A DNA stretch of 64,000 bases from Nocardioides zhouii (GTDB taxonomy: Bacteria; Actinomycetota; Actinomycetes; Propionibacteriales; Nocardioidaceae), in NCBI RefSeq assembly GCF_004137345.1, contig NZ_SDWV01000002.1, positions 1 to 64,000 of the forward strand, written 5' to 3'. Both the position numbers and the translations under genes were made by a program. Shown here piece after piece: positions 7,351 through 20,769 of the stretch. The notes under the pieces were generated by a model. It made no database searches. It worked only from the letters and a program-made list of their open reading frames with translations, and was not told where the DNA came from. The first letter of the stretch is position 1. Each line of letters opens with the position of its first letter.

Positions 7351-8868
7351 TCAGCTCGCGCTGATCTCGATGGTGTGCAGCCCGGTCGACCCGTCCGGGT
7401 CGGGTCGGGCGATGGCGCTCGTCTGGGTCTCGCCGTCCTTGCCGATCGCGCGTACGCGCACCTCGTGGTCGCCCTCGGGGACGTCGAGGGTGACGGCCCA
7501 CTGGACCCAGGTGTCCACCGACGGCACCTCGCCCAGGTCGGCGCGCTCCCACGGACCGCCGTCGACCTGCACCTCGACCGCCTCGATGCCGGTGTGCTGG
7601 CGCCAGGCGACGCCGCCGAAGGAGACCTCGCCGGCGGCGACACCGTCGCCGGAGCGCGGCACGTCGATGCGCGAGGCGATCTTGACCGGCCCCTCGGCCG
7701 ACCAGCCCTTGTCCGTCCAGTAGCCCACTGCCGTGTCGAAGGTCGTGACCTCGTAGTCCACGACCCACTTCGTCGCGGAGACGTAGCCGTAGAGCCCCGG
7801 CACGACGGTGCGCACCGGGAAGCCGTGCTCGATCGGGAGCGGGCGACCGTTCATCGCCACGGCCAGCATCGCGTCCCGGTCGTCGGTCAGCGCGGCGAGC
7901 GGCGTCGCGCAGTACCAGCCGTCGTGGGAGGTCTGGAAGACGCAGTCGGCGTCCGCGCTGACCCCGAGGTCGGCGAGCAGGTCCGCGATGCGTACGCCGC
8001 TCCATCGCACGTTGCCGATCAGGCCGCCGCCCACCTCGTTGCTGACGCAGTTGAGCGTGATCCACGACTCGGTCATCTGTCGGGCGACGAGGTCTGCGTA
8101 GCTCAGCGTGACCTCGCGGTCGACGAGCCCGTGGATGCGCAGCGACCAGTCCTCGGGCGCGATGGTCGGCAGCGCGATGGCGGTGTCGATCCGGTAGAAG
8201 TCCTCGTTGGGCGTCTGCCACGGCGCGATGCCCTTCAGCCCGACGGACGTGGCGGGAGGGGGCTGACGCCGGGTGACGCCCGGGATGCGCAGCAGCCGGC
8301 GGCTCGACTCGACGTGGCGTCGACCGGCACCCACGAAGCGACCGGCGCCCGCGATGGCAACGGTCGACACCGCCACCGCACCGGCGACCATCAGGAAGAC
8401 GCGGCGCTCGCGCGACTCCAGCTCAGGACGCTGGCGCCCGCGCCTCAGCGCGTCGACGAGGGCCGAGTGCACGGCGACCCAGGTGACCGCCCCGACACCG
8501 ATCGGGAGGATGTCGGTGGCCCCCGAGCTCGGGAGCGACAGCACGGCCGCCAGGCCCAGCGCGGCGATCGCGGCCCACACGAGCATCGGCCGCCACCAGG
8601 CACCCCGCGCCAGCAGGCCGGCGCCGGCGAAGCAGCCGAGGAGGATGACGAGGATGCCCGTCACCAGGGCCGGCTTGTCGTAGTGGCCCAGCACGGAGAT
8701 GGCCCGCTCCGCCGCCGCCCCGGGGGTGAGCTTGATGACCGACTCGGCCACCGCCACCACCGGGGACTCGCGGATGCTGAGCACGTTGGCGGTGGCGTAG
8801 CTGGTCGCCAGGCCCGCGAGTCCGGCGAGGACTCCGGCGAGCGCCCAGGGCGTACGTCGTGTGGTCAC
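7351..8868 (-). CDS. Membrane-anchored sulfite-oxidase-family molybdopterin oxidoreductase
   Basis: This 505-residue protein has an N-terminal block of about four or five membrane helices (residues 1-175). A molybdopterin-binding domain of the sulfite oxidase/YedY family follows, then a C-terminal Mo-co dimerisation domain (about 400-500). The Mo-ligand Cys is visible at 274 in [12 protein letters not shown]. The open frame extends upstream to 9396, but that part is antisense to ispF. GTG 8868 is the plausible start because the membrane segment begins directly after it, and a weak GACAAT box lies 6 nt upstream. The family oxidises sulfite or reduces oxidised methionine. With a fused membrane anchor and no haem partner nearby, the substrate cannot be assigned. 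Confidence 0.85.
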
Positions 8869-8905
8869 CCGATCATTGTCCCTCGCCCTCGGGCATGATG
8901 CCGAC

Positions 8906-9403
8906 GTGAGGTCCTTACAGTCCGGAGACGTCCCCGAGAGCCGCATCGGCGTCGGCACCGACGTGCACCGGCTCGTGGTGGGCGTACCGATGCACCTCGC
9001 CGGCCTCTCCTGGCCGGACGAGCCTGCGGGGCTCGAGGGCCACTCGGACGCCGACGTCGCCGCGCACGCCGCCTGCGACGCCCTCTTCTCGGCGGCCGGG
9101 CTGGGCGACCTCGGGACGAACTTCGGCACGACGGAGCCCGAATGGGCGGGCGCCTCCGGGGTGACCCTCCTGACCGAGACGGCCCGGCGCGTGCGCGATG
9201 CCGGCTGGGAGATCGGCAACGTCGCGGTGCAGGTGATCGGCAACGTCCCGCGCCTGGGTCCGCGTCGCGACGAGGCGACTCGCGTCCTCTCCGACGCCCT
9301 GGAGGCGCCCGTCAGCCTCTCCGCCACCACCACGGACGGGCTCGGCCTCACCGGCCGCGGCGAGGGCGTCGCCGCCATCGCCACCGCGCTCCTCACCCGC
9401 TAG
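8906..9403 (+). CDS. ispF: 2-C-methyl-D-erythritol 2,4-cyclodiphosphate synthase
   Basis: IspF converts CDP-ME 2-phosphate to ME-2,4-cyclodiphosphate in the MEP isoprenoid pathway. The protein is 165 residues, a usual family length. Metal-binding residues are visible: Asp19 and His21 in TDVHRL, and His54 in [12 protein letters not shown]. The C-terminal [15 protein letters not shown] block is present. GTG 8906 fits the family N-terminus better than the upstream GTG at 8861, which would overlap the divergent molybdoenzyme start; a weak CATGAT box lies 6 nt upstream. In mycobacteria ispF follows ispD next to carD. Here it stands about 9-11 kb away from the IspD-family genes and carD. Confidence 0.95.
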
Positions 9404-9498
9404 GTCCACCCAGGGATCCGGTCGCGGCGCACCCGTGCGTCCGTGCGACCCCACGACCCGTCCGTCCGGACGTCGTCGCATCTCGTCGACCCTGCCTC

Positions 9499-9528
9499 TT
9501 GCGCACCGTGACGCAGGTCACCTACTCT
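9499..9528 (+). promoter_or_regulatory. Promoter of the E1alpha-E1beta-E2 operon with Crp/GlxR-type site
   Basis: The -35 TTGCGC (9499-9504) and -10 TACTCT (9523-9528) are separated by 18 nt. The palindrome GTGACGCAGGTCAC fills 9508-9521, inside the spacer. It matches the Crp/GlxR core GTGA-N6-TCAC exactly. Its position suggests repression by steric exclusion. Confidence 0.6.
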
Positions 9529-9551
9529 CTGGTCATACGTGACGAGCATAC

Positions 9552-9563
9552 GCACATATGTGC
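9552..9563. promoter_or_regulatory. Perfect 12-bp palindrome, candidate SorC-family operator
   Basis: GCACATATGTGC is its own reverse complement. It lies between the predicted transcription start and the ribosome-binding site of the E1alpha gene. The 20 bases at 9547-9566 share 12 positions with 12871-12890, upstream of the SorC regulator gene, as expected if one regulator controls both units. Confidence 0.5.
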
Positions 9564-9575
9564 ATAGGAGATGCG

Positions 9576-10553
9576 ATGAGCACCAGCCCCGGCACCGACC
9601 ACGACACGGCGCGACACGCGCTGCTGACCATGTGGACCATCCGCCGCTTCGAGGAGGCCGTCGACGACCTCTTCGCGCGGGGCCTCATGCACGGCACCAT
9701 GCACCTGTCCATCGGCCAGGAGGCGTCGGCCACCGGCGCCTGCCTGGCGCTGCGCACCGACGACGCGATCACGTCCACCCACCGCGGCCACGGTCACTGC
9801 ATCGCCAAGGGTGCCGACCTCACGCGGATGATGGCCGAGCTGCTCGCCAAGGAGACCGGCTACTGCCGCGGACGCGGCGGCTCGATGCACATCGCCGACA
9901 CCGCGACGGGCAACCTCGGCGCCAACGGCATCGTCGCGGGCGGCATCCCCATCGCCGCGGGCGCGGCGCTGGCGTACCAGATGCGCGGCGAGGACCGCGT
10001 CGTCGCCTGCTTCTTCGGCGACGGCGCCGCCAACGAGGGCGCCTTCCACGAGGCGGTCAACCTCGCCGCGATCTGGAAGCTGCCGGTCGTCTTCATCTGC
10101 GAGAACAACAAGTACGGCATGTCGTTCTCCACCGAGAAGTCGATGGCCATCGAGAACATCTCCGAGCGCGCCGCCGGCTACGGCATCCCGGGCGTCACCG
10201 TCGACGGCAACGACCTGGACGCGGTGTACGACGCGGTCAGCACGGCGGTCGCACGCGCCCGCGCCGGCGACGGCCCGACGCTCGTCGAGAACCTCACCTA
10301 CCGGTGGAAGGGCCACAGCAAGTCCGACAAGAACCTCTACCGCACCAAGGAGGAGATCGCGGACTGGCGCAGCAGGGACCCGATCCTGCGCTTCGAGGCG
10401 CAGATCAAGGAGGCCGGCGTCCTCACGGACGAGGAGGTCCAGGCCGTCCGCACCCAGGCGATGGAGCAGATGCGCGACGCCGTACGCCAGGCGAACGCTG
10501 CCCCTGATGCCGATCCGTCCGACCTCCTCGACGCGGTCTTCGCGCGAGCCTGA
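9576..10553 (+). CDS. TPP-dependent dehydrogenase E1 alpha subunit (acetoin dehydrogenase / PDH type)
   Basis: This is a 325-residue alpha subunit of a thiamine-diphosphate 2-oxoacid or acetoin dehydrogenase. The TPP-binding motif [13 protein letters not shown] is clear, followed by [15 protein letters not shown]. The phrases [13 protein letters not shown] and [10 protein letters not shown] are strongly like acetoin dehydrogenase AcoA. ATG 9576 is chosen because TAGGAG lies 5 nt upstream. It is first in a three-gene operon with E1beta and E2, and no E3 gene follows. The length and motifs fit the acetoin type better than branched-chain 2-oxoacid enzymes, but the substrate cannot be read from sequence. 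The neighbouring PTS locus makes a DXP-like acyloin worth testing. Confidence 0.9.
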
Positions 10554-10581
10554 CCGCGACTTCGAACAGGGAGCACACACC

Positions 10582-11583
10582 GTGACCACAGCAGGGACCG
10601 ACCGCGTCATCACCTACTCCGAGGCCGTGCGCGAGGCCATCGGCCAAGCCATGGAGGCGGACGACCGCGTCTTCATGCTCGGCGAGGACATCGGGGTGTA
10701 CGGCGGCGCCTTCGGCGTCAGCGGTGACCTCTACCACCGCTTCGGCGGCGACCGGATCCGTGACACCCCGATCTCCGAGCTCGGCATCGTGGGTGCGGCC
10801 GTCGGCGCCGCCCTCGCCGGGATGCGACCGATCGTGGAGATCCAGTTCTCCGACTTCACCAACCAGGCGATGGACCAGATCGTCAACCAGGCCGCCAAGA
10901 TCCACTACATGCTCGGCGGCGCGATGTCGGTGCCGATGGTGCTCCGCGCCCCCCTCGGCTCGGGCACCGGCGCAGCCGCCCAGCACTCGCAGAGCCTCGA
11001 GGCCTGGTTCGCCCACGTGCCCGGGCTCAAGGTCGTGATGCCGGCGACCGCGGCCGACGCCAAGGGGCTCCTGCTCTCCGCCATCGACGACCCCAACCCG
11101 GTCATCGTGCTCGAGCACAAGCTGCTCTACCGCACGTCCGGTCCCGTCCCCGAGGAGGCCGTCCGCGTCCCCCTCGGCAAGAGCGCCATACGTCGGCGGG
11201 GCGAGCACCTCACGGTGGTCGCCACCGGCGTGATGGTTTCGCGCTCGCTCGAGGCCGCCGAGATCCTGGCGCAGGACGGCATCGACATCTCGGTGATCGA
11301 CCCCCGCACCCTGACGCCGCTCGACGACGCCCCGATCCACGAGGACGTCTCCCGCACTGGTCGCGCCCTGCTCGTGCAGGAGGCCCCCGGCCACGTCGGC
11401 TTCACGGCCGAGCTGTCGGCCCGGATCGCCGAGTCGCCGACGATCTACCGCCTGCTCGCACCCGTACGCCGGCTGAGCGGGCTCGACGCCCCGATCCCCT
11501 ACGCCCCCCAGCTCGAGCGCGCGTCCGTGCCGCAGGTGGAGGACATCGTCGAAGCAGCCACGAAGCTGATGAAGGAGTCCTGA
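10582..11583 (+). CDS. TPP-dependent dehydrogenase E1 beta subunit
   Basis: This is a 333-residue beta subunit with the transketolase pyrimidine-binding domain first ([18 protein letters not shown], then [13 protein letters not shown]) and the C-terminal transketolase domain after about residue 190. It pairs with the upstream alpha subunit to form the alpha2beta2 E1. GTG 10582 is the family-consistent start, preceded by an AGGGAG-like site. The stop TGA shares one base with the ATG of the E2 gene (11581-11583), so translation is coupled. The length matches AcoB and PDH-E1beta proteins. Confidence 0.9.
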
Positions 11584-12788
11584 TGGCACGGCTCGCGATC
11601 CGGATGCCCAAGATGTCGATGACCATGACCGAGGGCGAGGTCTCGGAGTGGATGGTCCGCGTCGGTGACGAGGTCGCCGAGGGCGACGTCGTCTGCGAGG
11701 TGATGACCGACAAGGTCGACATGGAGGTCGAGAGCACGGTCACCGGCGTCCTCGTCGAGATCGTCGTCGAGTCCGGCATGGCCACGGTCGGCGAGCCCAT
11801 CGGCTGGGTCGAGGGCGAGGACACCGGAGGTGGCTTCGGCGACCTGCTGAGCGAGCCCGACCCCGAGCCCGACGCGGTCGCAGAGCCGGAGCCGTCGGTC
11901 GCGGCAGCGCCCGCAGCGCCCGAAGCCGAGCCCGCGCCCGCGCCGGTCGTAGCGGTCGGACCGGTCGCCGCCGTCCCCCGGGCCCGCGGCCTGGCGCGCG
12001 AGCGCGGTGTCGACCTCGCCTCCGTCACGGGCACCGGCCCCGACGGACTGGTGCGGGTCGAGGACGTCGAGGCCGCGAGCCGGCCTGCGCCCGCCCCAGC
12101 CGCGCCGGCTCCCGCAGCCCCCGCAGCGGCCGTCGCCGTACCTGCTGCGCCGCGGCAGGACCGCGCCGCCAAGGTCCGCGCCGCGGTCGCCCGCAAGATG
12201 ACCGAGAGTGCGGCCGTGCCGCAGTTCACCGTGTGGCGCGACGTCGTGCTCGACGGGGCCGACGAGACCCGCAACGGCGTCTCCTGGACCACCGTCCTGC
12301 TGCAGGCGTACGCCGCCGCGATGCGCGAAGTGCCCGAGCTCCTCAACCGCTGGGACGCAGCCGGCTCGGCAGCGGTCCCCAGCGGCCCGCCGTCGGTCGC
12401 ACTCGCGGTCGCGACGCCCGGCGGCCTGATGGTGCCGGTGTTCACCGAGCCCGACGCCCGCGACCCGCACGAGCTCGACGCCGAGCTGAAGTCGGTCGTC
12501 GCGGCCGCCCACGCCGGGCGGCTCGACCCGTCCTACCTCGGCCTCGCCAACGGCTCGCTGTCCAACCTCGGCGGGCTGGGCGTGGACCGGTTCCAGGCCC
12601 TCGTCACGCCGCCCCAGGCGAGCGTGCTCGCGCTCGGAGCGATCGCCCCGAGGCCGGTCGCGGTGCCCGGGGGCGTCGGCCTGGCGCTGTCGGTCACGGC
12701 CGGGCTCACGGTCGACCACCGGGTCGGCGACGGCGCCCACGCGGCCGCCCTGCTGCAGGCGTTCGTCGTACGGCTGAGCGGTTCCTGA
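11583..12788 (+). CDS. Dihydrolipoamide acyltransferase (E2) with one lipoyl domain
   Basis: This 401-residue E2 transfers the acyl group from E1 to CoA. A single lipoyl domain occupies residues 1-78, with the lipoylated lysine at Lys44 in VMTDKVDME. An Ala/Pro/Glu-rich linker and a peripheral-subunit-binding domain (about 129-165, PRARGLARERGVDL) follow, then a second Ala/Pro linker and the catalytic domain. The active-site motif HRVGDG contains His379 and Asp383. The catalytic domain is somewhat short for the family (about 200 residues). No E3 (lipoamide dehydrogenase) gene is in the window, so a shared housekeeping E3 must serve. Confidence 0.92.
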   Translation: MARLAIRMPKMSMTMTEGEVSEWMVRVGDEVAEGDVVCEVMTDKVDMEVESTVTGVLVEIVVESGMATVGEPIGWVEGEDTGGGFGDLLSEPDPEPDAVAEPEPSVAAAPAAPEAEPAPAPVVAVGPVAAVPRARGLARERGVDLASVTGTGPDGLVRVEDVEAASRPAPAPAAPAPAAPAAAVAVPAAPRQDRAAKVRAAVARKMTESAAVPQFTVWRDVVLDGADETRNGVSWTTVLLQAYAAAMREVPELLNRWDAAGSAAVPSGPPSVALAVATPGGLMVPVFTEPDARDPHELDAELKSVVAAAHAGRLDPSYLGLANGSLSNLGGLGVDRFQALVTPPQASVLALGAIAPRPVAVPGGVGLALSVTAGLTVDHRVGDGAHAAALLQAFVVRLSGS

Positions 12789-12842
12789 TCGCCATGACTG
12801 CCACGTTGGTCCAGACCCCTCCCGCCATCCGGGTCCCGACCC

Positions 12843-12871
12843 TTGACGTGATGCACATCACATGCTCTGAT
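12843..12871 (+). promoter_or_regulatory. Promoter of the SorC-PTS operon with Crp/GlxR-type site
   Basis: The -35 TTGACG (12843-12848) and -10 TCTGAT (12866-12871) are 17 nt apart. GTGATGCACATCAC at 12848-12861 matches GTGA-N6-TCAC exactly and lies in the spacer. This is the same arrangement as at the E1alpha promoter. Both units therefore look subject to carbon-source control by a Crp/GlxR-family protein. Confidence 0.6.
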
Positions 12872-12890
12872 ATGCGAGCAAATGTGAGCA
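12863..12890. promoter_or_regulatory. Inverted repeat, candidate SorC autoregulatory operator
   Basis: TGCTC-N8-GAGCA (12863-12880) overlaps the -10 box of the regulator promoter. The adjacent bases 12871-12890 resemble the palindrome upstream of the E1alpha gene (12 of 20 positions). This fits autoregulation by the downstream SorC protein. Confidence 0.45.
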
Positions 12891-12910
12891 CGCTACGCAC
12901 AGAGGTGACA

Positions 12911-13897
12911 ATGCCCAACCCCCGCGACCCGTCGATGCTGCTGGCGGCCGCCCGGCTGTACTACCAGCAGGGTCGGTCGCAGGCAGAGGTCGCGACCGCG
13001 CTCGGCACCAGCCGCAGCAACGTCTCGCGGATGCTCACCGAGGCGCTGCGCCAGTCGATCGTCGAGATCCGGATCAACGACCCGGAGGGTCGGGTCAACG
13101 AGCTCGAGGACGAGCTGCGTACGACCTTCGGCCTCCGCGAGGTGCGGGTGGCGCACACCCGCAACATCCCCGGGCTCCGGGTCGAGGACGCCGTCGGGTC
13201 GCAGGCGGCCCGCCTCCTGCTCGACGAGCTCAGGGACTCGATGACCGTCGCGCTGTCCTGGGGCCACGCCCTGCAGGCGATGGTCTACGCGACCACGGCG
13301 GAGCACGAGTTCCACCGGCTCACCCTGGTCCAGCTCGTGGGCGGCCTGTCCTCCATCAGCAACGAGATCAGCGGCCAGGAGCTGGTCCGCGAGCTCGCCC
13401 TCCGCCTCGGCGCCGAGTACCGCTTCCTCCACGCCCCCGCCACGCTGGAGAGCGTCACCTCCCGCGATGCCCTGCTCGCCGAGTCCTCGATCGGCGCCGC
13501 GCTCGACGACGCCAACAGGGCCGACATGGCGTTCATCGGGATCGGCACGCCGACCCACGGCTCGTCGGCCGCCATCCTCGACTCGCTCAACCTCGACCGG
13601 GCTGAGGCCGACGCGTTCTGGGCCCAGGAGCCCGCGGGCGACGTCGCCGCGCGCTACTACACCGCGCAGGGCACGCCGCTGCACGGCGTGGTCGAGGACC
13701 GGGTCCTCGGGGTCAGCCTCGCTGGCCTCCTCGAGATCCCCAACGTCGTCGGCGTGGCCTCGGGCCGCGCCAAGACGCCCGGCGTCCTCGGAGCGCTCCG
13801 CGGCCGCATCATCGACTCCCTCGTCTGTGACGAGGCGCTCGCCCGCAGCGTGCTCAGCGCTGCGGGATCCGGCACTACCGAAGGGACGCGCCCGTGA
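12911..13897 (+). CDS. SorC-family sugar-phosphate-responsive transcription regulator
   Basis: This is a 328-residue regulator. Residues 10-60 form a helix-turn-helix (ARLYYQQGRSQAEVATALG, then TSRSNVSRML). Residues 65-320 are the sugar-phosphate-binding domain of the SorC/DeoR-related family, with the conserved IGIGTPTHGS near 215. Family members sense a phosphorylated sugar or polyol and control the adjacent transport operon. The ATG 11 nt after AGAGG is preferred; an in-frame GTG two codons upstream is possible. The stop overlaps the gutM-like start by 4 nt, so regulator and PTS genes form one operon. The effector is probably the polyol phosphate made by the PTS. Confidence 0.9.
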   Translation: MPNPRDPSMLLAAARLYYQQGRSQAEVATALGTSRSNVSRMLTEALRQSIVEIRINDPEGRVNELEDELRTTFGLREVRVAHTRNIPGLRVEDAVGSQAARLLLDELRDSMTVALSWGHALQAMVYATTAEHEFHRLTLVQLVGGLSSISNEISGQELVRELALRLGAEYRFLHAPATLESVTSRDALLAESSIGAALDDANRADMAFIGIGTPTHGSSAAILDSLNLDRAEADAFWAQEPAGDVAARYYTAQGTPLHGVVEDRVLGVSLAGLLEIPNVVGVASGRAKTPGVLGALRGRIIDSLVCDEALARSVLSAAGSGTTEGTRP

Positions 13898-14292
13898 GCC
13901 CCGGATTCGTCATCATCGCCGCGCTCGTGGCCGGCTGGCTGGTGCAGATCTACTTCACCTACCGCCAGTCCAAGGCCTTCAACGACGCCGTACGCCCCCT
14001 GCGATCCTCAGGCACGGTCAGCGTCGGGGTCGGCGGCAACCGCTACAAGGGACGACGCTCCTTCGTCGCCATCTCGGTCGACGACGGGGGTGTCGTGCGC
14101 GACGCACTCACCCTCAGCGGACTCACCACGTTCGCGAGGGCGCGCGCCCTGCCTGGACTGCTCGACGTCAAGGTCTCCGTGCTGCGCGGCGACCGCGACC
14201 TCCCCCACGTCTCGCCGTCGCAGCGGGTGGCCGCCCGCCAGGCGGCCGAGCTGTACGGCGCAGCACGCACGACGGTTCGGGCCACCGTGTGA
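13894..14292 (+). CDS. gutM: GutM-like glucitol operon activator
   Basis: The protein is 132 residues with one N-terminal membrane helix (about 4-20) followed by a small soluble domain, as in GutM/SrlM proteins of glucitol operons. The family is described as an operon activator in E. coli, but its membrane segment makes a direct DNA-binding role doubtful. It starts at GTG 13894, overlapping the regulator stop by 4 nt. The position between a SorC regulator and glucitol-family PTS genes supports the call. Confidence 0.8.
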   Translation: MSPGFVIIAALVAGWLVQIYFTYRQSKAFNDAVRPLRSSGTVSVGVGGNRYKGRRSFVAISVDDGGVVRDALTLSGLTTFARARALPGLLDVKVSVLRGDRDLPHVSPSQRVAARQAAELYGAARTTVRATV

Positions 14293-14302
14293 CCAGCACC
14301 AA

Positions 14303-14344
14303 CCGCTGACCGGCCCCGGGGTGGAGCCCGGGACCAGTCAGCGG
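14303..14344 (+). terminator. Strong hairpin between gutM and the PTS genes
   Basis: CCGCTGAC (14303-14310) pairs perfectly with GTCAGCGG (14337-14344), and an inner CCCGGG pair extends the stem. No T-run follows. It could be an attenuator that lowers or separates PTS expression relative to the regulator, or a processing or stability element. Confidence 0.6.
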
Positions 14345-14439
14345 GTCAGACGCCGAGCGGACCGCTTCCGCCGGTGAGAACGATGCCGGGCAAGCATCAC
14401 GACCAGGCTCGACAGAGAGCCGACTCGACAGGAGCAATC

Positions 14440-15069
14440 ATGCCATTCACCTCCATGCTGGCCGCGGGGATCCCCCTGGCCGCCGACACCCCCACGGTGG
14501 ACCCGCCGACCGGCGTCTTCGGCGCCCTCGCCGACGCTGCCGACTGGTTCATCGGGCTCTTCCAGGCCGGCGGAGACGTCTTCCTCGGCCTTGTCACAGG
14601 CATCATCCCGACGCTGATCGTCCTGCTCACCTTCGTCAACGCGCTCATCCGGTTGATCGGGCCCGAGAGGATCGACAAGCTGGGCGAGGTGGCCGCACGC
14701 CCGGGGCTGCAGTACTACCCCGTGCGCTACCTCGTGCTGCCACTCCTGGCCGTCTTCTTCCTCACCAACCCGATGGCCTACACGATGGGCCGGTTCCTCC
14801 CCGAGAAGTACAAGCCCGCCTTCTACGACTCGGCCGTGAGTTTCGTGCACCCGATCACCGGCATCTTCCCGCACGCCAACCCCGGTGAGCTGTTCGTCTA
14901 CCTCGGCATCGCGGCCGGCATCACCACGCTGGGCCTCAACACCAGCGACCTGGCCGTGCGCTACCTGCTGGTCGGCCTGGTCGTGATCCTGATCCGCGGC
15001 ATCCTCACCGAGATCATCACCACGCGCATGCTCGCCCGCCGCGCCAGCCAGGCGGAGGTGTCGGCATGA
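14440..15069 (+). CDS. srlA: PTS glucitol/sorbitol-family EIIC component (SrlA-like)
   Basis: This 209-residue membrane protein is homologous to SrlA/GutA, the EIIC2 part of the glucitol PTS. It has several hydrophobic segments, with conserved [18 protein letters not shown] and [17 protein letters not shown]. It forms part of the membrane channel that takes up a polyol during phosphorylation. ATG 14440 is preferred because GGAG lies 5 nt upstream. A frame extension upstream lacks a ribosome site. The stop overlaps the next start by 4 nt. The substrate need not be sorbitol, since no sorbitol-6-phosphate dehydrogenase is nearby. Confidence 0.9.
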
Positions 15070-15653
15070 GCACCACGACCAAGACCCCGTCCGGACGTGG
15101 CGGCATGGACGGCATCAACAAGGTGCTCGTCACCATCGGCACCAAGGTGGGCGGCGTCGTCGGCGTCCTCTACCAGGCCGGACGCGACACCATCGAGACC
15201 GTCATCCGCAACATCCTGCCCTTCATGGCCTTCATCGCGGTCCTGATCGGCATCATCACCGAGACCGGCCTGGGCGACGCCCTGGCCCACCTCATCGAGC
15301 CGCTCGCCAGCAACCTCGTCGGGCTGCTCGCGATCAGCGTCTTCTGTGCCCTCCCGGTGCTGTCGCCGGTGCTCGGCCCCGGCGCGGTCATCGCGCAGGT
15401 GGTCGGCGTGCTGCTCGGCACCCGGATCGGCGAGGGCGACATCCCGCCCCAGTACGCCCTCCCGGCGCTGTTCGCGATCGACCCGCAGGTCGGCTGCGAC
15501 TTCATCCCCGTCGGTCTCGCTCTGGGCGAGGCCGAGCCGGAGACCGTCGAGGTCGGCGTCCCGGCCGTCCTCATCTCGCGACTGATCACCGGGCCCGTGT
15601 CCGTCGTGATCGCATACTTCGCGAGCTTCGGCCTGTACACCAGCAGCAACTGA
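15066..15653 (+). CDS. srlE: PTS glucitol-family EIIC membrane domain (SrlE C-terminal part)
   Basis: The 195 residues match the C-terminal membrane half of E. coli SrlE ([21 protein letters not shown], then [20 protein letters not shown]). The EIIB domain that starts E. coli SrlE is missing here and is encoded by the next gene but one-hairpin downstream. It overlaps srlA by 4 nt (ATGA). Together with SrlA it makes the translocation unit. Confidence 0.88.
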
Positions 15654-15660
15654 GTCAACG

Positions 15661-15693
15661 CTGGACCGGTCGGTGCACCACCGGCCGGTCCAG
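15661..15693 (+). terminator. Near-perfect hairpin between the EIIC and EIIB genes
   Basis: CTGGACCGG (15661-15669) pairs with CCGGTCCAG (15685-15693), and an inner CGGTG/CACCG stem leaves a tiny loop. No T-tract follows. Within an operon this more likely sets subunit ratios or stabilises an mRNA end than stops transcription. Confidence 0.55.
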
Positions 15694-15718
15694 CCCCTCC
15701 CACCCATCAGGAGAAGTC

Positions 15719-16090
15719 ATGAGCGAGTACAAGTCAGTCGTCGTCACCAAGGGCCGTGGCGGCTGGGGCGGTCCCCTGACCATCACCCCCACCGACGAGC
15801 GCCCTCTGGTGGCTTCCATCACCGGCGGGGGCATCCACCCGGTGGCCCAGCGCATCGCCGACCTCACCGGCGGTGAGGTCGTCGACGGCTTCAGGTCGTC
15901 GGCCCCCTTCGACAAGCTCGCCGTCGCGGTCATCGACTGCGGCGGCACCGCCCGCGTCGGCGTCTATCCCATGAAGAAGGTCATGACCGTCGACGTGCAC
16001 GCGACGAGCCCCGCCGGCCCCCTGGCGCAGTTCATCACCGAGCAGCTGTTCGTGTCGGGCGTGAAGCCCGAGGACGTGACGGAGACGTGA
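15719..16090 (+). CDS. PTS glucitol-family EIIB component as a separate protein
   Basis: This 123-residue soluble protein aligns with the N-terminal EIIB domain of E. coli SrlE (TKGRGGWGGPLTI, then VAVIDCGGTARVGVYP). Cys74 in IDCGG is the predicted phosphocysteine. It accepts phosphate from EIIA and passes it to the incoming polyol. It has a good ribosome site (AGGAGAAGTC before ATG). As a split domain placed after the EIIC gene, it reverses the domain order of E. coli SrlE. Confidence 0.9.
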   Translation: MSEYKSVVVTKGRGGWGGPLTITPTDERPLVASITGGGIHPVAQRIADLTGGEVVDGFRSSAPFDKLAVAVIDCGGTARVGVYPMKKVMTVDVHATSPAGPLAQFITEQLFVSGVKPEDVTET

Positions 16091-16488
16091 GCACGGCCCC
16101 GACCACCGTCTACGAGTCCACGGTGACAGCGGTCGGAGCCCAGGTCACCGCGTTCCTCGAGCACGGCATCCTCATCTTCTTCGCGGACGAGGCGCCCCCG
16201 GAGCTGCACGACATCTCCGTGCTGCACCGGGCCACGGTGGCCGACGACGGCCCCCGTCCCGGCGACACCGTCCACCTCGGCGCAGCCACCCTCGAGGTGC
16301 TGGCCGTCGGCGAGGTCGTGCGGGACAACCTCCTCAACCTGGGCCACCTCGACCTCAAGGCGGACGGGCTCACCGAGGCCAAGCTCCCCGGCGACGTGTG
16401 CGTGCCCAAGGGCGAGATCGCGCTCCTCGCGGTCGGCGACTCCTTCCGCATCACCCGCCCCGCCTCCACCGACACCGGACAGGACTGA
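16087..16488 (+). CDS. srlB: PTS glucitol-family EIIA component (SrlB-like)
   Basis: This is a 133-residue cytoplasmic phosphocarrier. His47 in ISVLHRA corresponds to the phosphorylated His of SrlB. The conserved block NLLNLGHLDLKADG and LPGDVCVPKG is present. It takes phosphate from HPr, which is not in this window, and gives it to EIIB Cys74. The GTG start overlaps the EIIB stop by 4 nt. Confidence 0.9.
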   Translation: MSTAPTTVYESTVTAVGAQVTAFLEHGILIFFADEAPPELHDISVLHRATVADDGPRPGDTVHLGAATLEVLAVGEVVRDNLLNLGHLDLKADGLTEAKLPGDVCVPKGEIALLAVGDSFRITRPASTDTGQD

Positions 16489-16489
16489 C

Positions 16490-17815
16490 ATGAGCTACCG
16501 AGACAGGCTGCAGGAGCGGCTGGACACGACGGGACGACCCCTGCGGGTCGGCCTCGTCGGCGCCGGCCAGATGGGCCGCGGCTTCGCCGCCCAGCTGCTC
16601 CGGATGCCGGGCATCACGCTGTCCGCCGTGCTGGACGTCCAGCACGAGCGCGCCGTGGAGGCGCTGACCCAGGCCGGCATCGACCCGTCCGAGGCCGACG
16701 ACACCGCCACCGCTGTCCAGGTGATCGAGGACGGCGGGAGCATCGCGCTGACCAGCGTGGACCGGCTCGCCGGCCTGCCGCTCGACGTGGTCGTCGAGGC
16801 GACGGGAGTGCCCGACGTGGCGGTCGCGGTCGCCGTACAGGCGCTGGCCGCCGGGATCAGCGTCGCCACGCTCACCGTCGAGGCGGACGTCACCGTCGGC
16901 CGCTACCTCAAGCAGCTGGCCGAGCAGTCGGACGCGATCTACTCCGTGTGCCGCGGCGACGAGCCGGTGGAGACGAAGATCCTCGTCGACTACGCGCGCG
17001 ACCTGAACTTCGAGGTGATCTGCGCGGGGAAGGGCAAGAACAACCCGCTCGACCCCTATGCCACGCCCGAGTCGCTCGCCGAGCGGGCGGCGCAGAAGCA
17101 GATGAACCCCAAGATGCTCACCAGCTTCGTGGACGGTTCGAAGGCGATGATCGAGATGGCCTCCCTGGCCAACACGACGGGCCTCGGCGTGAGCCGGCGC
17201 GGCATGTTCGGTCCGCCGTCCACCGTCGGGACGCTGCACGAGACCTTCGCGCTCGTGAAGGACGGCGGCATCATCGAGGAGGCCGGCGTCGTCGACTACT
17301 GCACCGGCCCGGTGGCGCCCGGCGTCTTCGTGGTCATCCGCACCGACGACCCCTACGTCCACCACGAGATGACGTACCTCCAGATGGGCGACGGGCCCTA
17401 CTTCGCGCTCTACCGGCCCTACCACCTGGCCAGCATCGAGGCACCGCTCACGGTGTACGAGATGGTGCTCGACAAGCGCCCCAGCCTGACCTCGGACCAC
17501 TGGACCGCCGAGGTCGGCGCCCAGGCCAAGCGGGCGTTGAAGGCCGGCGAGCGGATCGACGGCATCGGCGGGATGATGGTCCGCGGGCTCATCGACAAGG
17601 CCGAGGACTTCGCCGCGGAGGGCCTCGTGCCGCTGGGCGTGCTCGCCGGCGCGACGCTGAAGCACGACGTACCGGTCGACCACACGCTGACCTACGACGA
17701 CGTCGACCTCGACGAGTCGGCCCTCATCGTGCGGATGCGCCGGATCCAGGAGTCGATGTCCTCCGGCGGCGAGGTCCCCGACCTCGCCACGCTGAGCGCG
17801 ATGATCGCGGGCTGA
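16490..17815 (+). CDS. COG4091 NAD(P)-dependent oxidoreductase with SAF domain (DXR-like/DRL family)
   Basis: This is a 441-residue protein. The N-terminal Rossmann domain has GAGQMG at 24-29, the middle domain resembles homoserine dehydrogenase, and the C-terminal SAF-like domain spans about 365-435. It belongs to COG4091. The Brucella DXR-like (DRL) enzyme, an alternative DXP reductoisomerase making MEP from DXP, was described as a homoserine-dehydrogenase-like protein of this group, but many members have no proven function. It starts 1 nt after the EIIA stop and is the only obvious catalytic enzyme in the PTS operon, so it should act on the PTS product. If DXR-like and reversed, it would turn MEP into DXP. 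True homoserine dehydrogenase is unlikely because no threonine-pathway genes are near. Confidence 0.8.
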   Translation: MSYRDRLQERLDTTGRPLRVGLVGAGQMGRGFAAQLLRMPGITLSAVLDVQHERAVEALTQAGIDPSEADDTATAVQVIEDGGSIALTSVDRLAGLPLDVVVEATGVPDVAVAVAVQALAAGISVATLTVEADVTVGRYLKQLAEQSDAIYSVCRGDEPVETKILVDYARDLNFEVICAGKGKNNPLDPYATPESLAERAAQKQMNPKMLTSFVDGSKAMIEMASLANTTGLGVSRRGMFGPPSTVGTLHETFALVKDGGIIEEAGVVDYCTGPVAPGVFVVIRTDDPYVHHEMTYLQMGDGPYFALYRPYHLASIEAPLTVYEMVLDKRPSLTSDHWTAEVGAQAKRALKAGERIDGIGGMMVRGLIDKAEDFAAEGLVPLGVLAGATLKHDVPVDHTLTYDDVDLDESALIVRMRRIQESMSSGGEVPDLATLSAMIAG

Positions 17816-17877
17816 CGCGCTCGACCCGAGCCGACGACGGCAGGACGGGGCGGACGTGAGGACGGCACGACGGGCGC

Positions 17878-17883
17878 TAGGCT
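17878..17883 (+). promoter_or_regulatory. -10 box giving a leaderless start for the IspD-family gene
   Basis: TAGGCT ends 6 nt before GTG 17890. This spacing is typical of actinobacterial leaderless mRNAs. It means the gene has a promoter independent of the PTS operon. Confidence 0.6.
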
Positions 17884-17889
17884 CGCTCG

Positions 17890-18678
17890 GTGTCGCTCCC
17901 CCCGTCCGCCCGTGCTGCGGTCGTGATGCTCGCAGCCGGCGAGGGGCGCCGCAGTGGCCACCACACCAACAAGGTCCTCCTCCCGCTCGCCGGTCGCCGT
18001 GTCTTCACGTGGTCGATCGAGTCGGCCCGCCGGCTGGTGGCCGTGACCCGCACCGTGCTCGTCATCCGCGAGGAGGACCGCGATGCCGTGATGTCGACGA
18101 TCGACCGTGAGATCGGACCGCCCGACGTCACCGTCGTCGTGGGCGGCGACAGCCGGCACAGCTCGGAGTGGCAGGCCCTCCAGGCGCTGGCCCCGGCGAT
18201 CGAGGCCGGCGAGCTCGACGTCGTGGTCATCCACGACGCGGCACGGCCGCTGGCCGTCACCGCGATGTTCGCCTCGGTGATCGACGCGGCGCTCGAGCAC
18301 GGCGGCGCGATCCCCGTACGCGACCAGGGCCACCTCGCCGCGCTCGGCGAGGGCGTCCAGCCGCCCGAGCGCGTGGTCGCCGTACAGACTCCTCAGGCGT
18401 TCCGCGCGGCTCCCCTCCTCGAGGCCTACCGCCAGGCCGAGGCCGACGGCTTTGTCGGCACCGACACGGCCAGTTGCATGGAGCGCTACACCGACGTCCC
18501 GGTCTTGTGCGTCGACGGCGACGCGGGCAACATCAAGATCACGTTCCCCGAGGACCTGTTCCTGGCCGAGCGGCTCCTCGCCAAGGCCGACTGGGACCTC
18601 TCCGGACGCCCACGCCAGCGACGGGAGTCTGCGATGTCTCACCTGCGGGACCTCCTGCCCCACGGCGAGCGGCAGTGA
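17890..18678 (+). CDS. IspD-family cytidylyltransferase (MEP or related polyol-phosphate substrate)
   Basis: This is a 262-residue CTP:polyol-phosphate cytidylyltransferase of the IspD/TarI family. The nucleotide loop AAGEGRR (15-21) with Lys28, GGDSRHSS, HDAARP, VQTPQAF, GTDTAS and NIKITFPEDL are all visible. It differs from textbook IspD in one place: the usual PVxDT(I/M)K is PVRDQGH, losing the Thr and Lys, and the C-terminus is extended by about 25 residues. It is the best IspD candidate in the window, but a related substrate is possible. It lies 74 nt after the DXR-like gene, with its own leaderless promoter. Confidence 0.8.
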   Translation: MSLPPSARAAVVMLAAGEGRRSGHHTNKVLLPLAGRRVFTWSIESARRLVAVTRTVLVIREEDRDAVMSTIDREIGPPDVTVVVGGDSRHSSEWQALQALAPAIEAGELDVVVIHDAARPLAVTAMFASVIDAALEHGGAIPVRDQGHLAALGEGVQPPERVVAVQTPQAFRAAPLLEAYRQAEADGFVGTDTASCMERYTDVPVLCVDGDAGNIKITFPEDLFLAERLLAKADWDLSGRPRQRRESAMSHLRDLLPHGERQ

Positions 18679-18685
18679 GAACCCG

Positions 18686-18994
18686 ATGAGCCACGAGGAG
18701 GCGGAGCTGCACTGCGAGGTCTGCGGCCAGCTGACCGACCACGAGCTCCACTACGCCGGACGGCTGCTCGACTCCGTGCGCTGCACCCGCTGCGGCACCC
18801 ACGTCGAGCTGTCGGCACGCGCGCTCATCCCGGCGTACGCCCTCGACCTCGAGCAGCGGCTGCTCAGCAAGCCGCGGCGGATGCTGCGCCGGATCGCGCG
18901 CGACCCCGGGGGCTACCTGCGGCAGCTCCCGCGCGCCGTGCTGCGCCAGCCGAGGAAGTTCCTCAGCGAGTTCCGGGGCCTGCTGCGTCGTTGA
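18686..18994 (+). CDS. Small zinc-ribbon protein
   Basis: This is a 102-residue protein. Two CxxC pairs (Cys10/Cys13 and Cys33/Cys36) form a likely zinc ribbon at the N-terminus. A basic, Arg/Leu-rich helical tail (about residues 50-102) follows. ATG 18686 lies 7 nt after the IspD-family stop, so it is probably cotranscribed. Its last 32 nt overlap the convergent IspD-like gene. I do not recognise a function; it could bind nucleic acid or act as a membrane-surface protein. Confidence 0.7.
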   Translation: MSHEEAELHCEVCGQLTDHELHYAGRLLDSVRCTRCGTHVELSARALIPAYALDLEQRLLSKPRRMLRRIARDPGGYLRQLPRAVLRQPRKFLSEFRGLLRR

Positions 18995-19688
18995 GCGCGC
19001 CGGCGGGACGATCGGCGGGCTCGCGGCGCACGCTCCGTGACAGCTCGTCGACGCACTCGAGCAGGTTGACCGACGAGGCGTCGTCGACCCGGCGAGCCAG
19101 CGACGGCGCTCGGACGAGCTCGACCTCCCCGCGCGTACGCAGCCAGGCGGCGAGCCGGCCGAAGTCGTCGATCGGCGGAGGGACGTCCTGGGTCAGCGCC
19201 GACGCGAGCACCCCGGACGCCACGACCGCGGGTGACACCAGCGCGGCCAGGCCCTCGCGGTCGATCGTGCCCTGGATGCGCGAGTCCACCACGGTCTTCA
19301 CCGTGTCGGTCACGGGTCGGTAGGCGAGCACCGAGCGCTCGGGGTGCGCTGCCGCCTGGCGGCGGACCTCGCGGATGAACTCGCTGGACGCCAGCGGGCA
19401 GAGCGCGTCGTGCACGAGCAGTCCGGCGGCCACATCACGGGTGCGCAGGGCCTCCCACCAGTCGTCGCCGGCGCGTACGTCGGCCGCCATGCCGCTGCGT
19501 CGTACGTCGGTCACGACGCGTTCCAGGTCGGCCTCATCCACGACCACGAGCAGGTCGTCCTGGCCCGCTGCCGCCAGCGCCCTGAGGGCGTGCAGGTAGA
19601 GGGGGACCTTGTGCAGCGCGGCGAAGGGCAGCCCACCGCGCCCGGCCAGGGCCAGCACCGCAGGCAGCGGGCCTTGCGGGCCGGTCAT
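18963..19688 (-). CDS. Degenerate IspD-like protein B
   Basis: This is a 241-residue protein with the IspD fold pattern but a broken active site. The glycine-rich CTP loop (AAGxGxR) is replaced by LALAGRGGLPF. HDAARP has become HDALCP. The DT(V)K motif survives in RPVTDTVK, but the C-terminal NxKxT block is missing. ATG 19688 overlaps the stop of the preceding gene by 4 nt, so the two are coupled, and both lie downstream of carD, the position of ispD in mycobacteria. It may be a catalytically altered descendant of the original ispD, possibly acting as a heteromer with protein A. Confidence 0.65.
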   Translation of the reverse strand: MTGPQGPLPAVLALAGRGGLPFAALHKVPLYLHALRALAAAGQDDLLVVVDEADLERVVTDVRRSGMAADVRAGDDWWEALRTRDVAAGLLVHDALCPLASSEFIREVRRQAAAHPERSVLAYRPVTDTVKTVVDSRIQGTIDREGLAALVSPAVVASGVLASALTQDVPPPIDDFGRLAAWLRTRGEVELVRAPSLARRVDDASSVNLLECVDELSRSVRREPADRPAGALNDAAGPGTR

Positions 19689-20197
19689 GCCGGCTCGGGC
19701 ATCGTGAGGAGCTCGAGAGCTGCCACGTCCGCGGCCGACGACACGCGAGCCGCGGCCGCCGGGGCGACCAGCCGCTCGACGGCGTACGCGACCTCCAGCC
19801 GGCCGACGAGCTCGGCGAGGTCCGTGGAGGGCAGGTCGGGGAGCGCGGCGACCACCGTTGCCGGCAGCACGACCGGGGACAGGACCGTCCCGGCCTCGTC
19901 GACGCCGGCAACGACCGTCCCGGTCTCCACCGAACGGGCGACACACGCGGCGATGAAGGCTGCGGGCGTCATCGGGCAGAGGGAGTCGTGCACCACGAAG
20001 GGCTCACCACTGTCGATGAGGCCCTCCCACGTCGTGCCGAGGTCGACGGCGGTGACGCGAGCGTCACCGAGGGCCCAGGCAGCACACGCCACGAGCGACT
20101 CACCGTGGACGAGCTCGAAGGGCAACGCGCCGCGGCCCTCGTCCACGATCATGCCGAAGGCGGGCGTTGCGTCGTCGTCGTCGTACTCAGTGGTCAT
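19685..20197 (-). CDS. Degenerate IspD-like protein A (short)
   Basis: The protein is 170 residues. It parallels protein B: GRGALPFELVHGESLVACAAWAL corresponds to GGLPFAALHKVPLYLHALRAL, and VHDSLCPMTPAAFI to VHDALCPLASSEFI. It is shorter than any active IspD (about 220-240), and neither the CTP loop nor the terminal Lys motif is recognisable. It lies 86 nt after carD and is coupled to protein B by an ATGA overlap. A tandem duplication followed by decay or new function explains the pair. Confidence 0.6.
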   Translation of the reverse strand: MTTEYDDDDATPAFGMIVDEGRGALPFELVHGESLVACAAWALGDARVTAVDLGTTWEGLIDSGEPFVVHDSLCPMTPAAFIAACVARSVETGTVVAGVDEAGTVLSPVVLPATVVAALPDLPSTDLAELVGRLEVAYAVERLVAPAAAARVSSAADVAALELLTMPEPA

Positions 20198-20283: not shown

Positions 20284-20769
20284 TCAGGAGGCGAGGACCT
20301 CGTCGAGGGTGGCCTCGGCCTTGTCCTCGTTGGTCTTCTCGGCCAGGGCCAGCTCGGAGACGAGGATCTGGCGCGCCTTGGCCAGCATCCGCTTCTCGCC
20401 GGCCGACAGCCCACGGTCACGCTCGCGGCGCCACAGATCGCGGACGACCTCCGACACCTTCATCACGTCGCCGGAGTGCAGCTTCTCGAGGTTCGCCTTG
20501 TAGCGGCGCGACCAGTTGGTCGGCTCCTCGACGTGGGCGGCCCGCAGCACGTCGAAGACGCGGTCGAGACCCTCCTTGTCGACGACGTCGCGGACGCCGA
20601 CGAGATCGAGGTTGCAGGCCGGTACGCGAACGACCAGGTCCTGCTGGGCGACAATCCGGAGGACGAGATACTCGCGGTCCTCTCCCTTGATCGTCCGCGT
20701 CTCGATGTCCTCGATGACTGCGGCCCCGTGATTGGGATAGACGACCGTTTCGCCAACGGTGAAAGTCAT
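20284..20769 (-). CDS. carD: CarD-family RNA polymerase-binding regulator
   Basis: This 161-residue protein has an N-terminal RNA polymerase interaction domain ([20 protein letters not shown]) and a helical C-terminal DNA-contacting domain (about 65-161). The family binds the beta subunit and stabilises the open promoter complex, mainly at rRNA and ribosomal promoters. Its length matches mycobacterial CarD (162). A leader with AGGAAAGGGAA precedes ATG 20769. It heads an operon with the two IspD-like genes. Its target, RpoB, is also encoded in this window. Confidence 0.96.

What the first reader, a model, noticed from the sequence alone, without database searches (positions are those of the whole stretch)
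17890..20197. Three IspD-family genes within 2.5 kb, none of them textbook
The gene at 17890 keeps the CTP loop and the NIK motif but has PVRDQGH instead of PVxDTxK. The two genes after carD, where ispD stands in mycobacteria, have lost the CTP loop and look like a duplicated, decayed ispD. One keeps VTDTVK. The cell may have moved IspD function to the 17890 gene and kept the old pair for another role, or they could act as a complex.
Basis: partly seen in the sequence, partly recalled or inferred. Interest (0 to 1): 0.65.

Follow-up and report, generated by a model that had tools for sequence, protein, structure and literature searches.

The report
Essential enzyme split between two partners
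In Nocardioides and its relatives the essential isoprenoid enzyme IspD, elsewhere a pair of identical subunits, appears to have become a pair of unequal subunits, one keeping only the CTP site and the other only the substrate-binding arm, so that neither gene should work without the other.

Summary
The window (a Nocardioides genome) has three IspD-family genes at 17890-20197 and no other IspD in the genome, although DXR, IspF and IspH are present. What looks like decay is reciprocal. In related genomes the full-length IspD keeps every CTP-site residue but has lost the dimer arm that binds MEP (T140, K142, R157 in E. coli); the carD-linked gene has lost the CTP site but keeps exactly that arm. 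In homodimeric IspD the arm lies at the subunit interface that forms the active site, so the two halves should make one working heterodimer. Evidence: a column-level split in 74 + 82 proteins; 80 of 80 named loci; 178 Nocardioides genomes with both halves and none found with one only; predicted folds with the arm in one and not the other; purifying selection on both. 17890 = catalytic half; 18963-19688 (degB) = arm half; 19685-20197 (degA) = the older resident arm half, whose arm was deleted where a second pair had arrived, independently three or four times. That pair sits with a conserved polyol operon that may handle methylerythritol. Heteromer formation is inferred, not shown.

The parts
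17890..18678 (+). IspD catalytic half: intact CTP loop, HDAARP, TPQ and NIKIT, no MEP-binding beta-arm (PVRDQGH in place of PVxDTxK)
17929..17973 (+). CTP (P-loop) segment of the catalytic half, LAAGEGRRSGHHTNK
   Evidence: sequence; aligned to B. subtilis R15 and K22
18963..19688 (-). degB: arm half, no CTP site, keeps PVTDTVK...TIDR
19230..19316 (-). beta-arm of degB, PVTDTVKTVVDSRIQGTIDREGLAALVSP (equivalents of E. coli T140, K142, R157)
19685..20197 (-). degA: resident carD-linked copy, CTP site and arm both lost; overlaps degB by 4 bp
20284..20769 (-). carD, the anchor of the locus
18686..18994 (+). small protein with two CxxC pairs, travels with this IspD type; 3' end overlaps degB tail to tail
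16490..17815 (+). DXR-II-like oxidoreductase (DRL family), gene before IspD
   Evidence: PF21135 213.6 bits; Brucella DRL 3upl 287 bits
14374..16488 (+). glucitol-type PTS: IIC, IIBC (C part), IIBC (N part), IIA
9558..14292 (+). E1 alpha, E1 beta, E2 of a TPP-dependent dehydrogenase complex, a regulator with a sugar-binding domain, GutM
8861..9403 (+). ispF, at the head of the same run of + strand genes

Best explanation
The genes encode one MEP cytidylyltransferase made of two unlike subunits. The 17890 protein binds CTP and magnesium and does the chemistry but lacks the beta-arm. The degB protein has no CTP site but lends its beta-arm (T and R equivalent to E. coli T140 and R157) to the active site of the 17890 protein, as the second subunit does in the ordinary homodimer. 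The mirror-image site of the heterodimer is dead. The pair arose because two complete IspDs once shared a cell, formed mixed dimers, and each lost what the other supplied. degA is the arm half of an earlier resident pair; its arm was lost once degB was present, so it is now dispensable for arm supply. Shown here: the reciprocal loss, its conservation, the coupled presence and absence, selection, and the folds. Inferred: physical association and activity only as a pair.
For: (1) Reciprocal loss by column (B. subtilis numbering): 74 full-length IspDs keep R15, K22, G80, S86, D104, R107, T160 in 74/74 and K209 in 73/74, but T137 is L or V in 73, K139 and R152 are lost, and the R107-to-T160 stretch is mostly 47 residues instead of 54. 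82 carD-linked ORFs lack K22 (82/82), S86 (81/82) and R107 (C in 80/82), yet D136 and T137 are kept in 77 (gaps in the other 5), K139 in 74, R152 in 78. (2) Per genome every genome with an arm-less IspD has exactly one arm-bearing partner gene. (3) Replicated in 80/80 named Nocardioides loci. (4) Coupled distribution in 197 Nocardioides genomes: both halves in 178, the partner never without the arm-less IspD; five partner-less genomes looked at have a complete arm-bearing IspD of another type. (5) Arm of degA lost only where degB is present, at least 3-4 times on the tree. (6) Predicted folds: degB has the arm strands (129-133, 136-141), 17890 has coil there; both match IspD. (7) Median dN/dS 0.23 and 0.26. 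(8) No other IspD in the genome while DXR, IspF and IspH are present. (9) The arm links the two monomers, their interface is the active site, and the arm holds the MEP site (PMC11796317; PMC11770629; Thr140 contacts, PMC3111433).
Against: No interaction or activity data. A heteromer could not be modelled here. I found no open text saying outright that T140 and R157 reach into the neighbouring subunit's site; that detail is from my memory of the E. coli structure. The 17890 protein has an Arg two residues off the R152 column (PPERVVAVQTPQ); it is not conserved in the family. Five partner-less genomes (G212, G225, G274, G293, G500) have an IspD of intermediate score that I could not read.
Confidence: 0.85

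Rival explanations
1. 17890 is a self-sufficient homodimeric IspD that binds MEP without the usual arm, and the carD-linked protein is a regulator or scaffold of it.
For: All CTP-site residues are intact; pseudoenzyme regulators are common in general.
Against: The residues kept in the partner are the MEP-binding ones, not surface residues; the partner's arm is lost only when a second arm gene is present; partner and arm-less IspD are lost together.
Confidence: 0.1
2. The 17890 protein acts on another polyol phosphate handled by the neighbouring PTS and oxidoreductase, and IspD function lies elsewhere.
For: It follows a glucitol-type PTS and a DXR-II-like gene; the changed motif is in the polyol-binding part.
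Against: No other IspD in a 99.86% complete genome while IspF, DXR and IspH are present; relatives without the PTS operon have the same arm-less IspD next to ispF.
Confidence: 0.03
3. The carD-linked genes are decaying pseudogenes of the old ispD.
For: They lack the CTP loop and degA also lacks the arm.
Against: Open frames in nearly all genomes, median dN/dS 0.23 over 43 pairs, invariant PVTDT and DR columns across genera.
Confidence: 0.02

Closest known systems
Homodimeric IspD (E. coli YgbP 1I52/1INI, B. subtilis 5HS2, M. tuberculosis 3Q80)
   Same: Fold of both halves, CTP-site residues in 17890, arm residues in degB; active site at the dimer interface
   Different: Two unlike subunits, each with half of the site; at most one working site per dimer; 17890 falls under the TIGR00453 cut-off
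TarI / CDP-ribitol-type cytidylyltransferases
   Same: Same fold (S. aureus TarI Z 27)
   Different: Those in this family of genomes keep the DT..R arm and lie in longer open frames; 17890 lacks the arm and lies by ispF
DXR-II and DXR-II-like oxidoreductases (PMC3847144)
   Same: Neighbouring gene keeps K191, K193, R320, Y322
   Different: T229 is A in all copies of this operon; H250 is kept in most but is F in the window, so DXR-II activity is doubtful
Heteromeric enzymes in which an active and a degenerate paralogue complete one site
   Same: General principle of shared-site heteromers (my own knowledge)
   Different: I found no report of this for IspD in the papers searched; two surveys of MEP pathway variation did not mention it

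Membership tests
IspD (MEP cytidylyltransferase), catalytic half 17890 | PF01128 over its cut-off, full length | tested here: met
   135.6 bits, 2-220/221
IspD (MEP cytidylyltransferase), catalytic half 17890 | TIGR00453 equivalog cut-off (181.3) | tested here: not met
   157.1 bits
IspD (MEP cytidylyltransferase), catalytic half 17890 | CTP-site residues R15, K22, S86, D104, R107, K209 (B. subtilis) | tested here: met
IspD (MEP cytidylyltransferase), catalytic half 17890 | MEP-binding arm residues T137, K139, R152 (B. subtilis) | tested here: not met
IspD (MEP cytidylyltransferase), arm half degB | CTP-site residues | tested here: not met
IspD (MEP cytidylyltransferase), arm half degB | MEP-binding arm residues | tested here: met
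IspD (MEP cytidylyltransferase), the pair | CDP-ME formation from CTP and MEP | not testable with these tools
   needs enzyme assay
IspD (MEP cytidylyltransferase), the pair | Dimer joined by the beta-arm | not testable with these tools
   only single chains could be modelled
DXR-II (16490-17815) | Catalytic and anchor residues K191, K193, T229, with H250 | tested here: not met
   K191 and K193 kept, T229A and H250F (criteria from PMC3847144)

The most novel reading that the evidence does not exclude
Besides the heterodimeric IspD, the operon in which it lies is a route for 2-C-methyl-D-erythritol: the glucitol-type PTS imports it as MEP, which IspD and IspF send to isoprenoids, while the DXR-II-like enzyme oxidises MEP back to DXP and the TPP-dependent dehydrogenase complex splits DXP, an acetoin-like ketol, into acetyl-CoA and glyceraldehyde 3-phosphate.
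Probability: 0.3. Interest if true: 0.85.

Novelty: new variant of a known kind. Interest (0 to 1): 0.72.

Why it matters
IspD is essential wherever the MEP pathway is the only isoprenoid route, is a drug and herbicide target, and was judged evolutionarily rigid in a 2023 survey (PMC10663253). A natural division of its active site between two genes would be a clean case of two enzymes becoming each other's necessary half, with repeated natural swaps of partners to learn from. It also warns annotators: the arm half is scored as a broken ispD or is not recognised, and the catalytic half falls below the ispD cut-off. The claim is testable by a two-gene complementation.

Tried and rejected
A canonical IspD elsewhere in the genome: none, the one further match is GlmU. 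Pseudogene decay of the carD-linked genes: rejected by selection and conservation. Calling degA and degB a tandem duplicate: rejected by the tree, in which each groups with a different set. Recent duplication of one IspD into both halves: the best tree puts the arm half with the carD-linked canonical IspDs (96/95) and the catalytic half apart, but the AU test does not reject the two halves as sisters (p 0.3), so their origin is left open. Calling the 16490 gene DXR-II: residue test not met. Literature searches for a split or heteromeric IspD, or for Listeria DXR-II with sorbitol PTS, found nothing. Their PTS operon link was not examined either.

Full report
What is there. The window lies in contig C22 of a 4.6 Mb genome, 99.86% complete, whose relatives bearing this locus are Nocardioides. 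Three IspD-family genes stand tail to tail: 17890-18678 on the + strand and, after carD on the - strand, degA (19685-20197) and degB (18963-19688), which overlap by 4 bp. Pfam scores 17890 as IspD at 135.6 bits and degB at 37.7; degA is not recognised. The ispD equivalog model gives 17890 157 bits against a cut-off of 181.

No other IspD. The third PF01128 match of the genome is GlmU. DXR, IspF (in this window at 8942-9394) and IspH are present, so an IspD activity is expected and must come from these genes, unless an unrelated enzyme does it.

Not one odd gene but a family-wide arrangement. In 150 genomes of the family several genera have an ordinary carD-ispD pair of neighbours. In Nocardioides and several other genera of the family the order is instead carD, then a short degenerate ispD, then, converging on it, a full-length IspD. 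That IspD lacks PVxDTxK in every case.

The split. Aligned to B. subtilis IspD, the full-length IspDs keep all CTP-site residues and have lost T137, K139 and R152, with the arm stretch usually shortened from 54 to about 47 residues. The carD-linked proteins have lost K22, S86 and R107 and keep D136, T137, K139 and R152 with the arm at full length. T137 and R152 are E. coli T140 and R157: Thr140 bonds to the C1 and C3 hydroxyls of methylerythritol (PMC3111433), and Arg157 and Lys213 to MEP (PMC11770629). The arm joins the two monomers and their interface forms the active site (PMC11796317); the same arm is the main dimer contact in B. subtilis (PMC5099578). So what one protein lacks, the other keeps, and the kept part is one that in known IspDs acts at the subunit interface. 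That it acts in trans is my recollection of the E. coli structure and is consistent with these papers, but no text held here says it outright.

Replication and co-dependence. In 80 of 80 named loci the pair is present with the same split. In 197 Nocardioides genomes I find both halves in 178. Nineteen lack a good match to either. Of these, five were read and have a complete, arm-bearing IspD of another type; seven more have similarly weak matches to the arm-less model, two have none, and five (G212, G225, G274, G293, G500) have an intermediate score that I could not inspect. A few genomes with both have frame-shifted copies, mostly single-contig or draft assemblies. A Fisher test of the 178/19 split is formally tiny but ignores kinship, so I rest more on the next point.

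A natural experiment. About a dozen genomes of three or more genera carry a second type of pair, 17890-like IspD plus degB, together with a polyol operon. In nine of them with two carD-linked genes (G000, G118, G134, G180, G193, G247, G033, G499, and AVDCRST_MAG06, which is G479), the resident one has lost its arm by a deletion and degB has kept it. On a tree built without the arm columns the arm-less residents fall in separate places among residents of their own genus, needing four losses (three if the arm columns are used). Single partner genes never lack the arm. This is what one expects if the arm, and only the arm, is what the partner must supply. The window is one of these cases: 17890 with degB is the incoming pair and degA the disarmed resident.

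Folds and selection. AlphaFold models, made from alignments of named loci, are confident: 17890 mean pLDDT 88, with coil where the arm should be (146-162); degB 91, with the arm strands 129-133 and 136-141. Both match IspD structures best (VIA Z up to 28.9 and 22.4). Median dN/dS is 0.23 for partners and 0.26 for arm-less IspDs.

Origin. In a careful tree the partners group with the carD-linked canonical IspDs (96/95) and the arm-less IspDs lie elsewhere, as if a second IspD had joined the native one and the two had specialised. The AU test does not exclude a sister relation (p 0.3), so this is a preference, not a result.

Mechanism. Most likely a heterodimer with one live site: CTP, Mg and Lys from the 17890 protein, Thr and Arg of the arm from degB. 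Shown: the sequence split, its conservation, coupled distribution, selection and folds. Inferred: association and activity.

The neighbouring operon. ispF, a TPP-dependent E1/E2 complex, a regulator, GutM, a glucitol-type PTS, a DXR-II-like oxidoreductase, IspD and a small CxxC protein run in this order here and in eight of ten other stretches read in full, the two exceptions lacking ispF in the part fetched; in ordinary Nocardioides ispF stands next to ispD without the operon. The sorbitol PTS of Salmonella carries 2-C-methyl-D-erythritol (Testa 2004, as cited in PMC3994034). The oxidoreductase keeps K191, K193, R320 and Y322 but has T229A. Salvage or breakdown of methylerythritol is a plausible reading, not tested.

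Verdict. Ordinary parts, unusual division of labour: a new variant of a known enzyme, with strong comparative evidence and an easy decisive experiment.

Noticed in passing
8861-18994 +: Conserved run ispF, E1 alpha, E1 beta, E2, sugar-binding-domain regulator, GutM, glucitol-type PTS, DXR-II-like oxidoreductase, IspD, CxxC protein, in several genera of the family; a possible methylerythritol uptake and breakdown operon set between ispF and ispD.
   Followed up: partly
16490-17815 +: DXR-II-like enzyme with T229A; the copies in this operon keep H250 in most genomes, so they fit neither DXR-II nor the published DLO groups cleanly.
   Followed up: partly
G000 C43:59048-59362, and the whole genus: DXR of these genomes matches PF02670 in two pieces with about 18 model positions (58-76) skipped, in contrast to other genera of the family.
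   Followed up: no
15066-16090 +: The PTS IIBC subunit is split into two genes in reversed order: C part first, N part second; the same order in most relatives with the operon.
   Followed up: no
L317, L318, L319, L320: Relatives have a second regulator-like gene and about 2-3 kb of extra sequence between E2 and the first PTS regulator, absent here.
   Followed up: no
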